From Tropicimonas marinistellae (GTDB taxonomy: Bacteria > Pseudomonadota > Alphaproteobacteria > Rhodobacterales > Rhodobacteraceae), in NCBI RefSeq assembly GCF_001509585.1, contig NZ_LNCI01000008.1, forward strand, positions 62,001-126,000: a DNA stretch of 64,000 bases. Direction: 5' to 3'. Below, piece by piece: positions 29,760-38,511 of this stretch; within the stretch, counting starts at the first letter, position 1, and each line of letters starts with the position of its first letter. The position numbers and the translations under genes were made by a program. A model generated the notes under the pieces. The model made no database searches. It was not told the origin of the DNA and saw only the letters and a program-made list of their open reading frames with translations.

Positions 29760-30119
29760 ATGCGCGTCTTGTGGGCCATAGGTGGAGTTTCGTCCCTCGG
29801 TCTTGGAACATTGGGTGCGGTGCTTCCGCTTCTGCCAACTGTGCCGTTTGTCCTTTTGGCGGCCTATTGCTTCTCCCGCTCGTCCGACCGGATGCACGAC
29901 TGGCTCTTGGACCACAACATCTTTGGTCCCATGATTCACAATTGGCGGGAGAGCGGTGCCATTGGCCTGCGCGCCAAACGGCTCGCAACCGTGACCGTTG
30001 CAGCCGTGTTCGGTCTTTCGATCCTGATGGGCGTGCGTCCAATCCTGCTGGCCATTCAGGCGGCAGTATTGGGTGCGGTCCTCATTTTCATATGGTCTCG
30101 TCCAACGGGCTCGCGGTGA
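29760..30119 (+). CDS. YbaN-family (DUF454) inner-membrane protein
   Basis: 119 residues with three or so hydrophobic segments and the DUF454 signature: GTLGAVLPLLPTVPFVLLAAYCFSRSSDR followed by HNIFGPMIHNWRESGAI (split by a few residues). Function unknown; some members have been linked to haem or inner-membrane traits, but nothing here decides that. It starts three bases after hemW with GGAG upstream and so likely belongs to that transcript. Its last 32 bases overlap the end of parB on the opposite strand. Confidence 0.88.
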   Translation: MRVLWAIGGVSSLGLGTLGAVLPLLPTVPFVLLAAYCFSRSSDRMHDWLLDHNIFGPMIHNWRESGAIGLRAKRLATVTVAAVFGLSILMGVRPILLAIQAAVLGAVLIFIWSRPTGSR

Positions 30120-31008
30120 GCACCTGACACAGGGCATCCAGTTGATCGAGCGAGCGATAGCGAATGGTCAGTTGGCCGGAGCCATCCACATCCAGATGCT
30201 CGATTGTGACCTTCATTCTCAGATTTGCCGAGAGGTCTTGCTCAAGCGCCCGCGTATCGGCGTCTTTTTCCGGCTTCTTTCCGCTGGATTTCTCTCGGCT
30301 GGTATCGGGTGCGATTGCTTTCCTTACCAGCGCCTCTGTTTCCCGCACGGACAAACCGCGTGTCACGACTTGTCGCGCCAATTCCGCAGGATGCTCGGCT
30401 GTGATGAGCGCCCGCGCATGACCGGCTGACAGCTTCCCGTCACGCAGAAGGCGTTGAACCTCTTCCGGCAATTGCAGGAGCCGCATGACGTTGGCGATAT
30501 GACTTCGGCTCTTCCCGAGTGCCTGGGCGAGTTGCTCCTGTGTGTGGCCGAACCTGTCAATCAGCTGGCGGTACCCGAGCGCCTCTTCCACCGCATTGAG
30601 ATCCGCCCGCTGGATATTCTCAATGATCGCGATTTCCAGAACTTCGGTATCGTCTAGATTTCGCTGAATAACAGGTACTTCGTGCAACTGCGCGATCTGC
30701 GCGGCGCGCCATCTGCGTTCCCCAGCAACGATTTCGAACATCGCCGGATTTCGCGGGCTGGGGCGCACGATCAAGGGTTGAAGGATGCCCTTCGTCCGGA
30801 TCGACTCCGCCAGTTCCTGTAGTGGTTCCCGGGCGAAGTCCTTTCGCGGCTGGTCCGGGTTTGCCTCAAGGGATTCGATCGGCAACACCCGCTCCGGCGA
30901 CAATTGTGCTGCTGGTGCCTCATTGCCAGGTGTGTCGAGCGCGACATCGGCCATTAATGCCGACAGTCCTCGCCCCAATCCTCGCGCCTTTTTCGGTTTC
31001 TTATCCAT
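30088..31008 (-). CDS. parB: Chromosome partitioning protein ParB
   Basis: 306 residues. CTP-dependent clamp that loads at parS and spreads to form the partition complex. N-terminal KKARGLGRGLSALM is the ParA-interacting peptide; the CTP-binding region holds GERRWRAAQ and ENIQRADLNAVEEA; the helix-turn-helix is HTQEQLAQALGKSRSHI; the C-terminal domain dimerises. The ATG at 31008 has GAGAGG upstream and lies 10 bases after parA. Two perfect parS sites are 1.4 and 3.3 kb away. It ends by overlapping the YbaN-family gene. Confidence 0.97.
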   Translation of the reverse strand: MDKKPKKARGLGRGLSALMADVALDTPGNEAPAAQLSPERVLPIESLEANPDQPRKDFAREPLQELAESIRTKGILQPLIVRPSPRNPAMFEIVAGERRWRAAQIAQLHEVPVIQRNLDDTEVLEIAIIENIQRADLNAVEEALGYRQLIDRFGHTQEQLAQALGKSRSHIANVMRLLQLPEEVQRLLRDGKLSAGHARALITAEHPAELARQVVTRGLSVRETEALVRKAIAPDTSREKSSGKKPEKDADTRALEQDLSANLRMKVTIEHLDVDGSGQLTIRYRSLDQLDALCQVLTASPLDETI

Positions 31009-31018
31009 CTTGACCTCT

Positions 31019-31828
31019 CTACGCGGTGAGGGCGACGCCGCGTTCAAGCATTTCGCGTGCCAGTGCCCGATAGGCGTTGCTCCCTTTTGACGCCGTATCG
31101 TACTCGAGCACCGGTTGCGCAAAGCTCGGGGCTTCCGAAATCCGCACGTTCCGCGGTACGCGGGTCTGGAACACGAGATCGCCGAGTGCATCGCGTGCAT
31201 CTTCTTCAACCTGCGTGGAGAGGTTGTTGCGGACATCAAACATGGTGAGCACCACGCCCTCGATCCTGAGACCCGGATTTGCGGTCTGACGGACTTCCCT
31301 CAAAGTGAGCATGAGTTGTGACAGCCCCTCGAGCGCAAAGAACTCGCTCTGCAGCGGAACTAGCACGGAATGTGCGGCGACCATGGCGTTCACGGTTAGC
31401 AAGTTGAGGGAGGGCGGACAATCGATCAATACATGATCAAACCCATATGTTGTAATCTCCGGCCGTCGCAACGCATCATGCAGCAGTGAACTACGCCGCT
31501 CATTGCCAACCAGTTCAATATCGGCAGAACTCAGATCGGTTGTCGCAGGCGCGATCCACAAGTGTTCCACGTCGGTTTCACGAACGACATCAGCCAGCGG
31601 CGCGTCGTCTAGAAGCAGATCGTACGTAGATTTCTCTCTGTCAGCTACATTGACGCCGAGCCCGGTAGAGGCGTTTCCCTGTGGATCCAGATCAACGACC
31701 AGTACCTCCCTGCCCTCCTCGGCGAGGGCTGCTCCGAGATTGATTGCCGTTGTTGTCTTCCCTACCCCGCCCTTTTGGTTGGCGATCGCGATGATTTTCG
31801 GCCCATTGGACCGTGGCGATTCAGACAC
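31019..31828 (-). CDS. parA: Chromosome partitioning ATPase ParA
   Basis: 269 residues. Walker-type ATPase that coats the nucleoid and moves ParB-parS complexes. The deviant Walker A is IANQKGGVGKTTTAINL; VVDLDPQGNASTGLG and DHVLIDCPPSLN are the other ATPase motifs. The start is GTG at 31828 in GTGTCTGA, overlapping the rsmG stop by 8 bases, with GGAG nine bases upstream. It belongs to the leftward run hemJ-rho-mnmE-mnmG-rsmG-parA-parB beside the origin. Confidence 0.97.
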   Translation of the reverse strand: MSESPRSNGPKIIAIANQKGGVGKTTTAINLGAALAEEGREVLVVDLDPQGNASTGLGVNVADREKSTYDLLLDDAPLADVVRETDVEHLWIAPATTDLSSADIELVGNERRSSLLHDALRRPEITTYGFDHVLIDCPPSLNLLTVNAMVAAHSVLVPLQSEFFALEGLSQLMLTLREVRQTANPGLRIEGVVLTMFDVRNNLSTQVEEDARDALGDLVFQTRVPRNVRISEAPSFAQPVLEYDTASKGSNAYRALAREMLERGVALTA

Positions 31829-32453
31829 GCTCGATTTCTCCAAGAACAAGGATGACCGCATTCGAGTCGGTTATACTCGGCCTGCGTTCGAGCTTGAAGC
31901 GGAAGTACGCGCGTGCGGCATCAATCTCGTCGTCCACCCGCGCACCTTTTGGGAAAAGGCAGACGCCGCCAGGTGCAAGGTGCGGGGCAGCGTAGTTGAG
32001 AAGCTCCGGGAGTGCGGCGACGGCGCGTGCTGAAACCACATCGGCGTTGCGTGGTTGCAGAGATTCAATTCGCTCCGCTAGAACCGTTCCCGAAACTCCG
32101 GTTTCCCGGAGAACCGTTGACAGGAAAGCGCACTTCCGTTTGTCGCTTTCCACAAACGTGAATTTCACATGCGGAGACAACTCAGCGGCAAGTATCGCGC
32201 ACACTACGCCTGGGAACCCTCCTCCCGTTCCGAAATCCAGCCAACTCCGAGCCTGCGTTGGCATGGCGGCAAAAACCTGGGCTGAATCAACGATGTGGCG
32301 GGACCAGCTTTCGTCGATTGTGGATGGCGCGACAAGATTGATCGCCGGATTCCATTTCTTGAGAAGCGTTCGGTGGCATTCGAGTCGGTCACATGTTTCA
32401 CGTGAAACATCCTGGCCGACTGCTTGGAGCAAACCGGGCCCGGTCTCAGGCAC
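31821..32453 (-). CDS. rsmG: 16S rRNA (guanine-N7) methyltransferase RsmG
   Basis: 210 residues. Methylates G527 (E. coli numbering) in 16S rRNA; loss gives low-level streptomycin resistance in other bacteria. SAM site: [21 protein letters not shown] and [12 protein letters not shown] are also typical. The start is GTG at 32453 in GTGCCTGA, an 8-base overlap with mnmG, with GGAG upstream. The peptide DVSRET near residue 15 is encoded by a perfect parS site, so this stretch of protein is constrained by partitioning as well as by its own function. Confidence 0.96.
32394..32409. other. parS partition site 1 (inside rsmG)
   Basis: The 16-bp palindrome TGTTTCACGTGAAACA is a perfect match to the bacterial parS consensus. 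It encodes part of DVSRET in RsmG. It should be bound by the ParB encoded 1.4 kb away and lies 5.1 kb from the putative origin. Confidence 0.95.
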
Positions 32454-34317
32454 GCTGCTTCTCCATGCGCCTGAGATGCGACAGTATCAGTGTGAGTGCC
32501 GCCGGAGTCATACCATCTATCCGGCCCGCCTGCGCCAGCGTCCGTGGACGAACGCGCTCCAGCTTCGACCGGATTTCCGTAGAAAGACCATTGAGTTGTC
32601 CGTAGGAAAAGCCCTCGGGAATCTCCCAGGACTCGTCCTTCTTCAGTGCCGCCACGTCTTTCTGCTGCCGCTCAATGTAGTTCGCATAGAGTGCGTCGCG
32701 CGAAATCTGTTCCAGGATGTGAGGCGCTATGCCACGCAATTCCGGCACCGCATGCTCCAGATTCGGTACAGCCGCGCCGGGAAGTGCCAAGGCTTCTAGC
32801 GCCGTTCGCTTGGGACCGTCCACATTCACGCGAACCCCGGCGGCATTCAACGTTCGGGACGAGACAACGACGCCGCCCAATGCGCGCCGACCTACGTCTA
32901 TCGCCTCGATCTTTTGCTCGAACTGCACCTGACGGTCGGACGACGCAATGCCAAGTTCAATTGCCAACGGCGTCAATCTCTGGTCGGCATTGTCCGCACG
33001 AAGCGCAAGCCGGTACTCTGCACGTGACGTAAACATGCGATATGGCTCCATCACGCCTTGCGTAATCAGATCGTCAATCATGACGCCGATGTAGCTGTTC
33101 TCGCGTCCGAACCGCACTGCCTCTTTCCCGAAAACACCAAGCGCGGCATTCAAGCCCGCGACAAGACCTTGTGCCGCGGCTTCTTCGTACCCTGTCGTTC
33201 CGTTGATCTGGCCGGCAAGATACAGACCCCTCAAGGACTTCAGCTGCAGCGTGTCGTCAAGGCTGCGAGGATCGACATAATCGTACTCGATAGCATAACC
33301 CGGCTGGAGAATGTCGACGGCCTCAAGACCATCAATTGATCGAACATAGTCGTACTGCACATCTTTAGGGAGGGACGTCGAAATCCCGTTCGGATAGACC
33401 GTGTGATCATCGAGTCCTTCGGGCTCAAGGAAGATCTGATGCGAGTCCTTATCGGCAAACCGTACGATCTTGTCCTCAATCGACGGACAGTACCTGGGCC
33501 CGACCCCTTCGATATGACCACCGTACATTGCCGACCGTTCCAAGTTCCGCCGAATGATGTCGTGGGTCCGCGAATTGGTGTGGGTAATCCCGCAGGATAT
33601 CTGCGGTACCACGGGTTTCCTCGACAGGAACGAGAACATTGTCGCCACGTCGTCACCGGGCTGAAGACCCAAGCGACTCCAGTCGATTGTACGGCCATCC
33701 AACCGCGGTGGCGTTCCAGTCTTCAGGCGGCCAAGGTCGACTCCAAGCGTCCTAATCTGCGAAGCGAGCTTTTTCGACGGACGATCACCAATCCGACCGC
33801 CTGATCGGGTCACATCCCCAATGTGTATCACGCCATTCAGAAACGTCCCCGTCGTCAGGACGATCGCGCCGGCTCGAATTTCGGCCTCGTCTGCAAGACG
33901 AAGTCCGACAACTCTGTTGTTCTCCGTAACAAGCTCGCAGGCTTCGCCCGTTACAACCGTCAGATTTTTCTGCGCCGAAATCGCGGCCTGCATTGCCGCC
34001 TTGTATAGTTTCCGATCCGCTTGAGCGCGCGGACCTTGCACGGCCGGGCCCTTCTTCCGATTCAGCAGTCGGAATTGAATGCCCGCCTCGTCAGCGACCC
34101 GGCCCATCAAGCCGTCGAGCGCATCCACTTCGCGAACGAGATGCCCTTTTCCAAGTCCTCCGATAGCCGGATTGCAAGACATCACGCCAAGATCATCGGG
34201 TTTCAGGGTAAGCAGAGCCGTTCGCGCACCGGCGCGGGCAGACGCGGAAGCAGCCTCGCAACCTGCGTGACCGCCCCCAACTACGATAACGTCAAAATCG
34301 TGTTTCACGTGAAACAT
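32446..34317 (-). CDS. mnmG: tRNA uridine-5-carboxymethylaminomethyl modification enzyme MnmG (GidA)
   Basis: 623 residues. FAD-dependent partner of MnmE that modifies the wobble uridine of several tRNAs. FAD-binding [12 protein letters not shown] is near the N-terminus; [13 protein letters not shown] and the C-terminal helical region for MnmE contact are as in homologues. Two starts are possible, GTG at 34323 or ATG at 34317; I prefer the latter because GGGAAG is well spaced. The first residues MFHVKH are encoded by a perfect parS site. mnmE precedes it directly and rsmG follows with an 8-base overlap. Confidence 0.97.
34301..34316. other. parS partition site 2 (at the start of mnmG)
   Basis: TGTTTCACGTGAAACA again, identical to the copy at 32394. 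On the minus strand it supplies codons 2-6 of MnmG (FHVKH plus flanks). It is 3.2 kb from the putative origin. Two identical sites 1.9 kb apart should nucleate one ParB complex. Confidence 0.95.
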
Positions 34318-37031: not shown

Positions 37032-37484
37032 TCAGAAGCGCAGAATGACCGAAAAGACAATGACGATCATCAGGACGGTCGGCAGTTCGTTCATTATCCG
37101 GTAGGTGCGTCCCGACAGCCGGAAGTCCCCGGCAACGAAATCCTTCCGTCGCGCGGCCAGCCACATGTGGAACCAGGTCATCGCAATCACCGATGCGCCT
37201 TTGGTGTAGGGCCATACGGACGTCCAGTCGATGATCCCCGGCGTGAAGACAAGCATCAGACCGAAGAGCCATGTCGCAATCAACGAGGGGTTCATGATCA
37301 GCTTCAGAAGCTTCCGCTCCATCATCTGGAACACACCGTCCATCTCGGTACCTGCGGTCGTCTGCTCCGTGTGGTGCACGTACAACCGTGGAAGATAGAA
37401 CAGCCCCGCCATCCAGGCGATAACCGAGATCACATGCAGGGACTTCGTCCAAAGATAGATATCGGCAAGCCAGTCAGCGATCAT
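37032..37484 (-). CDS. hemJ: Protoporphyrinogen IX oxidase HemJ
   Basis: 150 residues, four hydrophobic segments. HemJ oxidises protoporphyrinogen IX to protoporphyrin IX in haem (and bacteriochlorophyll) synthesis. The N-terminal LWTKSLHVISVIAWMAGLFYLPRLYVHH holds His17 and the Arg/His residues that are conserved in the family. First gene of the leftward run from the putative origin; the ATG at 37484 borders the gene-free region. In relatives hemE is usually next to hemJ; it is not here. Confidence 0.93.
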   Translation of the reverse strand: MIADWLADIYLWTKSLHVISVIAWMAGLFYLPRLYVHHTEQTTAGTEMDGVFQMMERKLLKLIMNPSLIATWLFGLMLVFTPGIIDWTSVWPYTKGASVIAMTWFHMWLAARRKDFVAGDFRLSGRTYRIMNELPTVLMIVIVFSVILRF

Positions 37485-37577
37485 TCGGTACAGTCTCCAA
37501 CGAGCAACGTCCCTCCCATCCTTAAATAGAAAAGAAGAAAGAAAGAAAAGATGGTGTAGTTGTAGGGTCTGTGCAGA

Positions 37578-37586
37578 TGTGGATTA
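37578..37586 (-). other. DnaA box candidate in the origin region
   Basis: TGTGGATTA on the plus strand, i.e. TAATCCACA on the minus, one mismatch from TTATCCACA. It lies between the two AT-rich blocks. Confidence 0.5.
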
Positions 37587-37879
37587 GTGAGTCATCCCCA
37601 GACCGATGAACACCGCGATGATCGGCGTTCACCTTTTCTACATCGTGGTATGAAGAAACTTTAATACTAATTTTCAATGTGTTACGTGAATCTCACTTGC
37701 GGACGACTCTGTGAGTATCTTCAGAATGCCTGTGCAGGACTCACGTTTTCCAACGCCATCGGATTGATGTTGCCCATAGAGGATGAATTCAGACATCGCC
37801 GTGGGCGACACGGCGCTCTGGCCGAACTTGGAAAAGATGTCCAGATATGCACACACGGCGTCCAACCCTTCCCCCCGGC

Positions 37880-37888
37880 TTGTCCACA
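37880..37888 (+). other. DnaA box candidate just upstream of maf
   Basis: TTGTCCACA, one mismatch from the TTATCCACA consensus, 11 bases before the maf start codon and overlapping its ribosome-binding region (AAGGAG at 37888-37893). Binding of DnaA here could also affect maf expression. Confidence 0.45.
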
Positions 37889-37899
37889 AGGAGATCCAC

Positions 37900-38511
37900 A
37901 TGAGCGCTTCCTCGGTTCCGGAGCTGCTTCTCGCATCACGTTCGGAAATTCGCGCTGCCCTCCTCCGCAATGCCGGTGTTCCCTTCTCTGTCCTTACGGC
38001 GCCGGTCGATGAAGAGGCCCTGCGCCTGGGGCTGGAAGCCGAAGGAGCGACTCCACGCGAAATGGCCGACCATCTGGCAGAATTCAAAGCGGCCAAGGTC
38101 GCTCGGAAAAACCCCGACAAGCTCGTGCTTGGCTGCGATCAGGTACTGGATTTCGATGGACGGGCGCTCGCCAAACCGCGGGATCCGCAGGAGGCCTCTC
38201 GTCAGATCTCTCTCATGTCCGGCAAACGCCACGATCTTTATTCGGCCACCGTGCTGTTCCACGAGGGTCGGCCGGTTTGGCGCCACATCGGTCATGTACG
38301 CATGACGATGCGCCATCTCTCTGCGGGATACATAGACGATTACGTGACCCGCAATTGGGACGAGATTCGGCATTGTGTCGGTGGCTACCAGTTGGAATCC
38401 GAGGGCGCTCGCCTCTTTGCATCGGTCGAAGGGGACTTCTTCACCGTTCTCGGTCTTCCCTTGTTGCCTCTTCTGGATCATCTTGTCGCGAGGGGGATCT
38501 TGGAAACATGA
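37900..38511 (+). CDS. Maf-family nucleotide pyrophosphatase
   Basis: 203 residues. Maf proteins hydrolyse modified or canonical nucleoside triphosphates (house-cleaning) and were first known for septum inhibition. The LLASRSEIRAALLRNAGVPF start, the CDQVLDFDG metal site and YQLESEGARLF are typical. AAGGAG is perfectly placed before the ATG at 37900. First gene rightward from the putative origin; aroE overlaps it as ATGA. Which of the Maf subtypes it is cannot be settled. Confidence 0.9.
   Translation: MSASSVPELLLASRSEIRAALLRNAGVPFSVLTAPVDEEALRLGLEAEGATPREMADHLAEFKAAKVARKNPDKLVLGCDQVLDFDGRALAKPRDPQEASRQISLMSGKRHDLYSATVLFHEGRPVWRHIGHVRMTMRHLSAGYIDDYVTRNWDEIRHCVGGYQLESEGARLFASVEGDFFTVLGLPLLPLLDHLVARGILET

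What the first reader, a model, noticed from the sequence alone, without database searches (positions are those of the whole stretch)
37485..37899. Putative chromosomal replication origin between hemJ and maf
Seen: the only gene-free stretch above 300 bp in the window; AT-rich blocks at 37521-37560 and 37651-37690; DnaA-like boxes TGTGGATTA and TTGTCCACA (one mismatch each); four GANTC sites in about 155 bp; all adjacent genes on both sides read away from it. Known: alphaproteobacterial oriC lies among hem/maf/aroE/coaE/dnaQ/secB genes, next to mnmE-mnmG-rsmG-parAB. Inference: this is oriC.
Basis: partly seen in the sequence, partly recalled or inferred. Interest (0 to 1): 0.75.

Follow-up and report, generated by a model that had tools for sequence, protein, structure and literature searches.

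The report
Chromosome replication origin of a roseobacter
This 415-base gap is almost certainly where the chromosome of this alphaproteobacterium starts to copy itself; its location is of a known type, but the short repeat thought to be pried open first differs from the textbook motif.

Summary
The order parAB-rsmG-mnmG-mnmE-rho-hemJ | maf-aroE-coaE-dnaQ-secB is there. The gap holds the densest DnaA-box cluster of its 260 kb contig. The genome's only two parS sites lie 3.2 and 5.1 kb away. The gap (339-449 bp in 101 of 110 hemJ loci) carries a conserved core: AT block, purine tract, G-phased trinucleotides, spacer, tandem DnaA boxes, and about 100 bp on an IHF-like site. The core is unique in 5.42 Mb. 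The GC-skew minimum is 1.6 kb from the gap in one single-contig relative, but 18 kb off in another, +31 kb raw (+18 corrected) in the own contig, and 20 and 54 kb off in two congeners. By location this is an ordinary oriC.

The unexpected part is the trinucleotide tract: across Rhodobacteraceae and other Alphaproteobacteria it is phased on G, nearly C-free, and mostly lacks the middle adenine held to define a DnaA-trio. DnaA there mostly has Tyr where B. subtilis Asn187 reads that adenine. A causal link is hypothesis; the within-class test did not support it.

The parts
37485..37899 (.). putative oriC: intergenic gap hemJ-maf
37522..37528 (+). TTAAATA: distal end of the unwinding region; by eye similar AT motifs at the same place in many relatives
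37530..37549 (+). 20-nt all-purine tract between AT motif and trinucleotides
37548..37565 (+). six G-phased trinucleotides on + strand, 5'-AAG ATG GTG TAG TTG TAG-3' (3'->5': GAT GTT GAT GTG GTA GAA), DnaA-trio-like, middle base not constant A
37566..37569 (+). 4-nt spacer GGTC (GGCC-like in relatives)
37570..37577 (-). weak DnaA box 1 (TGTGCAGA here; mostly TGTGGA.. in relatives)
37578..37586 (-). DnaA box 2, TGTGGATTA, 1 mismatch
37592..37600 (+). weak DnaA box TCATCCCCA, 2 mismatches
37634..37642 (+). weak DnaA box TTTTCTACA, 2 mismatches
37672..37684 (+). IHF-like site TTTCAATGTGTTA (1 mismatch to WATCAANNNNTTR, consensus recalled) inside the second AT block
37845..37853 (+). weak DnaA box ATATGCACA, 2 mismatches
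37880..37888 (+). DnaA box TTGTCCACA, 1 mismatch, beside the maf ribosome-binding site
37589..37742 (.). four GANTC sites (candidate CcrM methylation sites)
32394..32409 (.). parS, perfect TGTTTCACGTGAAACA
34301..34316 (.). parS, perfect TGTTTCACGTGAAACA; with the former the only ones in the genome at up to 2 mismatches
37032..37484 (-). hemJ (PF03653)
37900..38511 (+). maf (PF02545), start taken at ATG 37900
30088..31239 (-). parB
31019..31861 (-). parA

Best explanation
The gap is the chromosomal replication origin. Inferred mechanism: DnaA binds the tandem boxes at 37570-37586. It is guided across the 4-bp spacer onto the + strand trinucleotide tract (37548-37565), where it forms an oligomer on single-stranded DNA. 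Melting then spreads left through the purine tract to TTAAATA, and helicase is loaded there. An IHF-type bend at 37672-37684 would bring the right-hand boxes (37845, 37880) to the complex, and GANTC methylation and ParB-parS would couple initiation to the cell cycle and segregation. Shown here: the sequence elements, their conservation and uniqueness, the gene context, the parS sites, and the skew switch in relatives. Inferred: every protein-DNA step.
For: Gene order. 101 of 110 hemJ loci keep a 339-449 bp gap to maf. Common core in 99 distinct gaps, 4 of which score below 8. Core pattern unique in the 5.42 Mb genome at up to 3 mismatches. DnaA-box density peak of the contig. Only two parS sites in the genome, 3-5 kb away. 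Single-contig relative G011: skew minimum of the 180 kb around its gap at 3,475,899, 1.6 kb from the gap; skew sign flips between 1.58 and 1.68 Mb, near the antipode at 1.70 Mb. Relative G020 (2 contigs): skew and KOPS-like motif flip within 20 kb of its gap, skew flips again between 3.32 and 3.50 Mb, antipode 3.35 Mb. IHF-like site within 1 mismatch in 58 of 97 gaps against 17% in shuffles. Literature: the hemE gene cluster is used to place oriC in alphaproteobacteria (PMC4741004 passages); oriC called in 101 of 109 Rhodobacteraceae strains with Ori-Finder, skew minimum and parAB as criteria (PMC6699656 passages).
Against: Raw skew minimum of the own contig is 31.5 kb right of the gap; corrected for gene strand, 18.2 kb right. 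In congeners: G005 20.1 kb raw, 17.7 corrected; G004 53.7 raw, 57.6 corrected. G020: 17.9 kb on the maf side. KOPS-like GGGNAGGG switches 18 kb right in the own contig, 40 sites in all, and in G011 it already points forward from about 3.24 Mb (18 forward, 8 reverse between 3.24 and 3.48 Mb in the stretches sampled), some 0.2-0.35 Mb left of the gap. No perfect DnaA box is present and only two lie within 1 mismatch. The genome is a 41-contig draft, so no genome-wide skew could be made.
Confidence: 0.95

Rival explanations
1. The real origin lies 18-31 kb to the right, near the skew minimum, and the gap is only a divergent promoter region with DnaA-regulated genes.
For: Skew minima to the right in G000, G005 and G004, and on the maf side in G020; KOPS-like switch 18 kb right.
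Against: No second DnaA-box cluster in the 260 kb contig; the core pattern is unique in the genome; G011 puts the minimum at the gap; parS sites are on the left side; the right flank holds more - strand coding length (13.8 against 5.9 kb in the first 20 kb), which biases skew, though correcting for it still leaves 18 kb.
Confidence: 0.03
2. The conserved core is a promoter or RNA leader of hemJ or maf rather than an origin.
For: It lies between divergent start codons, within about 100 bp of the hemJ start.
Against: Similar tracts and tandem boxes lie upstream of a different gene (PF03618) in other alphaproteobacterial families; no Rfam family reached its gathering score in the window.
Confidence: 0.02
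3. The gap is oriC, but the trinucleotide tract does not bind DnaA as trios; it is a low-melting, C-free strand whose G phase has another cause.
For: In the window the published trio rule fails (longest NAN run 1); it fails in 53 of 61 class origins and 51 of 97 Rhodobacteraceae gaps.
Against: Same order and orientation as in the B. subtilis system (box, GC-rich spacer, trinucleotides whose commonest first unit in Rhodobacteraceae is 3'-GAT-5') and strong period 3 in G.
Confidence: 0.3

Closest known systems
Alphaproteobacterial oriC of the hemE/RP001-maf gene cluster (Caulobacter, Rickettsia, Sphingomonadaceae; Rhodobacteraceae as predicted with Ori-Finder)
   Same: Gene cluster, dnaA elsewhere (contig C1), few strong DnaA boxes, IHF-like site, GANTC sites, parAB nearby.
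   Different: hemJ, not hemE, borders the gap, and maf faces it directly; PF03618 (RP001) has no match in the own genome. The hemJ-maf junction is shared by 101 of 110 hemJ loci examined.
Basal unwinding system (BUS) of B. subtilis: DnaA boxes, GC-rich spacer, DnaA-trios
   Same: Order and orientation of tandem boxes, spacer and trinucleotide tract; first trinucleotide 3'-GAT-5'.
   Different: Following trinucleotides keep the first G but mostly not the middle A (mostly T in Rhodobacteraceae; A, G or T in the class); the published rule of three or more NAN is not met in the window.

Membership tests
Alphaproteobacterial chromosomal oriC | Location in the conserved hem/maf/aroE/coaE/dnaQ cluster near parAB-rsmG-mnmG-mnmE | tested here: met
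Alphaproteobacterial chromosomal oriC | DnaA-box cluster above background | tested here: met
   densest spot of 260 kb, though only 2 boxes within 1 mismatch
Alphaproteobacterial chromosomal oriC | AT-rich unwinding region next to a box | tested here: met
Alphaproteobacterial chromosomal oriC | GC-skew minimum at the site | tested here: inconclusive
   1.6 kb off in G011, 18 kb in G020, 18-31 kb in the own contig, 18-20 kb in G005, 54-58 kb in G004
Alphaproteobacterial chromosomal oriC | parS sites nearby | tested here: met
Alphaproteobacterial chromosomal oriC | Replication starts here in cells | not testable with these tools
   needs marker frequency
BUS / DnaA-trio element | DnaA box within 16 bp of the trinucleotide tract | tested here: met
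   12 nt from the last TAG to TGTGGATTA, with box 1 between
BUS / DnaA-trio element | At least three 3'-NAN-5' trinucleotides (rule in PMC8287927, section read) | tested here: not met
   longest run in the window 1; met in 46 of 97 Rhodobacteraceae gaps and 8 of 61 class origins; my own simplified implementation, no positive control
BUS / DnaA-trio element | DnaA-dependent strand separation needing the tract | not testable with these tools
   biochemical

The most novel reading that the evidence does not exclude
Most Alphaproteobacteria open their origin at a deviant DnaA-trio: a nearly C-free strand of G-phased trinucleotides (mostly 3'-GTW-5' in Rhodobacteraceae, 3'-GNT-5' in the class) without the obligatory middle adenine, read by a DnaA in which the adenine-reading Asn is replaced, mostly by Tyr, and the guanine-reading Arg by Lys. 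Base capture would then rest on the first G. This would be the deviant trio without a middle adenine that Pelliciari et al. 2021 suspected.
Probability: 0.4. Interest if true: 0.65.

Novelty: new variant of a known kind. Interest (0 to 1): 0.4.

Why it matters
It fixes the start of replication in a draft genome whose skew alone would mislead by tens of kb. If the trio reading holds, the middle-adenine rule would not hold in Alphaproteobacteria, origin predictors that rely on it would miss many of these origins, and two DnaA pocket residues become testable specificity determinants.

Tried and rejected
Covariation inside the class between Asn at the Asn187 position and A in the middle of the trinucleotides: three Asn genomes (G096, G146, G232; the last two are one genus) give 4 A + 1 C of 12 middle bases against 55 A of 192 for Tyr genomes, which is no support. 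By eye the two same-genus Asn genomes begin GAT GAT GAA next to the spacer; the third does not, so I make no claim. Looking for more genomes in the family and order of G146 returned only the same two.

Control of the class motif search: the same EM on five Markov-resampled sets gave median scores of 12.9-14.3 against 24.6 real, 5.0-6.3 C per tract against 0.61, and G phase 3.4-4.2 against 4.84. But 59-62 of 70 resampled regions also passed the score of 10 that I used as a cut (real 61 of 70), so that cut does not by itself separate signal from noise, and part of the G phase is selection by the seed. On the reverse strand the EM settled on a different, stronger motif (median 36.6), not followed up. 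When 20 more class regions were added the per-column G phase became less sharp (61-76%, 42-60%). A first scan with the Rhodobacteraceae matrix found the class tracts only in part. KOPS-like motifs were sparse in the own contig and in G011 do not switch at the gap. The Rfam search was empty. One search was a wrong query (a 32-residue stretch) with no hit.

Rows dropped: of 110 hemJ loci (some genomes occur twice, fetched by two tools) L026, L030 and L031 have no gap next to hemJ; 99 distinct gaps remain; L027 and L121 (no motif) were dropped for the 97, while L068 and L098 (scores 7.8, 7.1) were kept. Of 70 class regions, 9 with score 10 or less were dropped for the 61; they come from the 133 of 192 class genomes with a PF03618 match. 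There is no positive control (such as B. subtilis oriC) for the NAN rule.

Print searches on trios: 39 papers, 20 listed; 16 papers with DnaA-trio and Caulobacter; passages seen in 4: PMC10225481, PMC10797057, PMC6727663, PMC5043019. None of the passages I saw describes alphaproteobacterial trios; the other 12 papers were seen as a listing only, and supplements could not be read. So 'not described' is a weak statement.

Full report
What is there. The window is 64 kb of contig C40 (260,240 bp) of a 5.42 Mb, 41-contig genome. The closest named relatives by HemJ are Tropicimonas and Aliiruegeria, Rhodobacteraceae. The gap 37485-37899 separates hemJ (-) from maf (+). To the left lie rho, mnmE, mnmG, rsmG, parA and parB; to the right aroE, coaE, dnaQ and secB. 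The one DnaA match of the genome is on contig C1.

Observation check. AT blocks, two one-mismatch DnaA boxes and four GANTC sites are present at the stated places and exceed background in the 260 kb contig. The gap is the only place with two boxes within one mismatch in 415 bp. With two mismatches it has 5 boxes, and the only 415-bp windows of the contig with five or six start at window 37466-37592.

Origin evidence. (a) Of 110 hemJ loci from two searches (some genomes occur twice), 101 have maf 339-449 bp away, 2 have it about 1.2 kb away with another reading frame between (by eye a PF03618-like protein), and 7 have no maf in reach, of which two records end about 0.5 kb away. (b) 99 distinct gaps were aligned on a core; 4 score below 8. 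(c) The core pattern GTAGGGNNTGTGNNNNTGTGGATT occurs once in the whole genome at up to 3 mismatches, none in the reversed control. (d) The genome has two parS sites at up to 2 mismatches, both perfect, at window 32394-32409 and 34301-34316. (e) Single-contig relative G011 (3.56 Mb), sampled in 40 stretches of 20 kb: GC skew and a KOPS-like motif change sign between 1.58 and 1.68 Mb; in the contiguous 3.36-3.54 Mb the skew minimum is at 3,475,899, 1.6 kb from its gap at 3,477,464; the KOPS-like motif, however, points forward already from about 3.24 Mb. Relative G020 (2 contigs, C1 4.33 Mb), 31 stretches: skew is negative in all 11 stretches from 0.1 to 1.18 Mb, positive in 14 of 16 from 1.18 to 3.32 Mb (the other two slightly below zero) and negative in all 4 from 3.5 Mb on; the minimum in the contiguous 1.08-1.28 Mb is 1,163,224, 18 kb from its gap at about 1,181,100-1,181,500; the KOPS-like motif flips in the same intervals. 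(f) In the own contig the raw minimum is +31.5 kb and the strand-corrected one +18.2 kb; G005 gives +20.1 and +17.7, G004 +53.7 and +57.6. I take skew as supporting the region, not the exact site.

Second AT block. In a 130-bp zone starting 30 bp past the box-1 hexamer, a 13-mer matching the IHF consensus WATCAANNNNTTR (recalled) with at most one mismatch is found in 58 of 97 gaps (17 perfect), against 17% (1.2% perfect) in Markov-resampled zones. 44 of the 58 are on the + strand, 80-119 bp past the hexamer. In the window it is TTTCAATGTGTTA at 37672-37684, one mismatch, 96 bp past the hexamer.

The trinucleotide tract. On the + strand, left of the boxes, the consensus Rhodobacteraceae form is AAAAG-ATG-ATG-WTG-WTG-TAG-GGCC-TGTGGA. 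Read 3' to 5' from the spacer this is GAT (middle A 75%, T 24%) followed by four GTW units: G first (60-93% per column), T in the middle (69-77%), A only 9-21%. Period 3 in G is strong in 97 gaps (z 20) and in 61 other alphaproteobacterial regions taken upstream of PF03618 genes (z 12); with sequences at 80% identity or more thinned out it stays (34 gaps, z 9.7; 49 regions, z 11.2). T is periodic too (z 10 and 7.6). Period 3 in A is weak (z 3.3) and absent (z 0.5) respectively. The tracts contain 0.5 and 1.2% C. These z values use shuffles within tracts that were picked by a G-phased seed; the resampled-region control shows that part of the phase is selection. With the best G frame the middle bases are 34% A, 55% T, 11% G in Rhodobacteraceae and 28% A, 36% T, 35% G in the class. 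The window reads GAT GTT GAT GTG GTA GAA. The frame is an assumption; in another frame of Rhodobacteraceae (3'-TAG-5') the middle A is 43-78%, so a reader may prefer that frame there, but no column from -22 to -4 before box 1 has a majority of A in the class.

Link to DnaA. Published work holds that the middle base of a trio must be adenine (PMC6727663 passage), that B. subtilis Asn187 contacts it and Arg202 and Glu228 contact the first guanine, and that changing A to T or G impairs the origin while C is tolerated (PMC10721633, passages and one section). Pelliciari et al. (PMC8287927, results and search-program sections read) found potential trios in 1755 of 2070 origins and suspected deviant trios without the middle adenine. 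Own DnaA aligned to the 8btg chain (positions counted by me, residues checked) has Tyr205 at Asn187, Lys220 at Arg202 and Glu246 at Glu228. In 90 further genomes (30 Rhodobacteraceae, 60 other) the Asn187 position is Tyr 71, Phe 8, His 3, Asn 3, Val 2, Ser 2, Arg 1; Lys at Arg202 in 90 of 90; Glu at Glu228 in 90 of 90. So the class differs from B. subtilis in both protein and DNA. Inside the class the two do not vary together in my small sample. The link is a hypothesis.

Verdict. oriC: 0.95. Ordinary by location: oriC was called in 101 of 109 Rhodobacteraceae strains by Kopejtka et al. 2019 (PMC6699656, passages; author name recalled), and the hemE gene cluster is used to identify oriC in alphaproteobacteria (PMC4741004, passages). 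The deviant trinucleotide tract is the part worth testing.

Noticed in passing
C40:117600-131000 (window 55600-69000); L165-L174; L347-L356: In three of five genomes examined the skew minimum (strand-corrected in G000 and G005, raw in G020) lies about 18 kb to the maf side of the gap; a shared cause, such as a run of - strand genes including an addAB-like pair, is possible but untested.
   Followed up: partly
L156-L164 (G011, 3.36-3.54 Mb): The KOPS-like motif GGGNAGGG changes direction 0.2-0.35 Mb before the skew minimum in G011, while in G020 both change in the same interval.
   Followed up: no
L021, L124: hemJ loci without maf in reach across the origin gap; in L021 aroE is the next gene found.
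   Followed up: no
L027 (G021): A Rhodobacteraceae genome whose hemJ-maf gap lacks the usual core (score -1.7), although its DnaA keeps Tyr at the Asn187 position.
   Followed up: no
reverse strand of the 70 class regions: The motif search on the reverse strand converged on a stronger, unidentified common motif (median score 36.6), perhaps coding sequence of a neighbouring gene.
   Followed up: no
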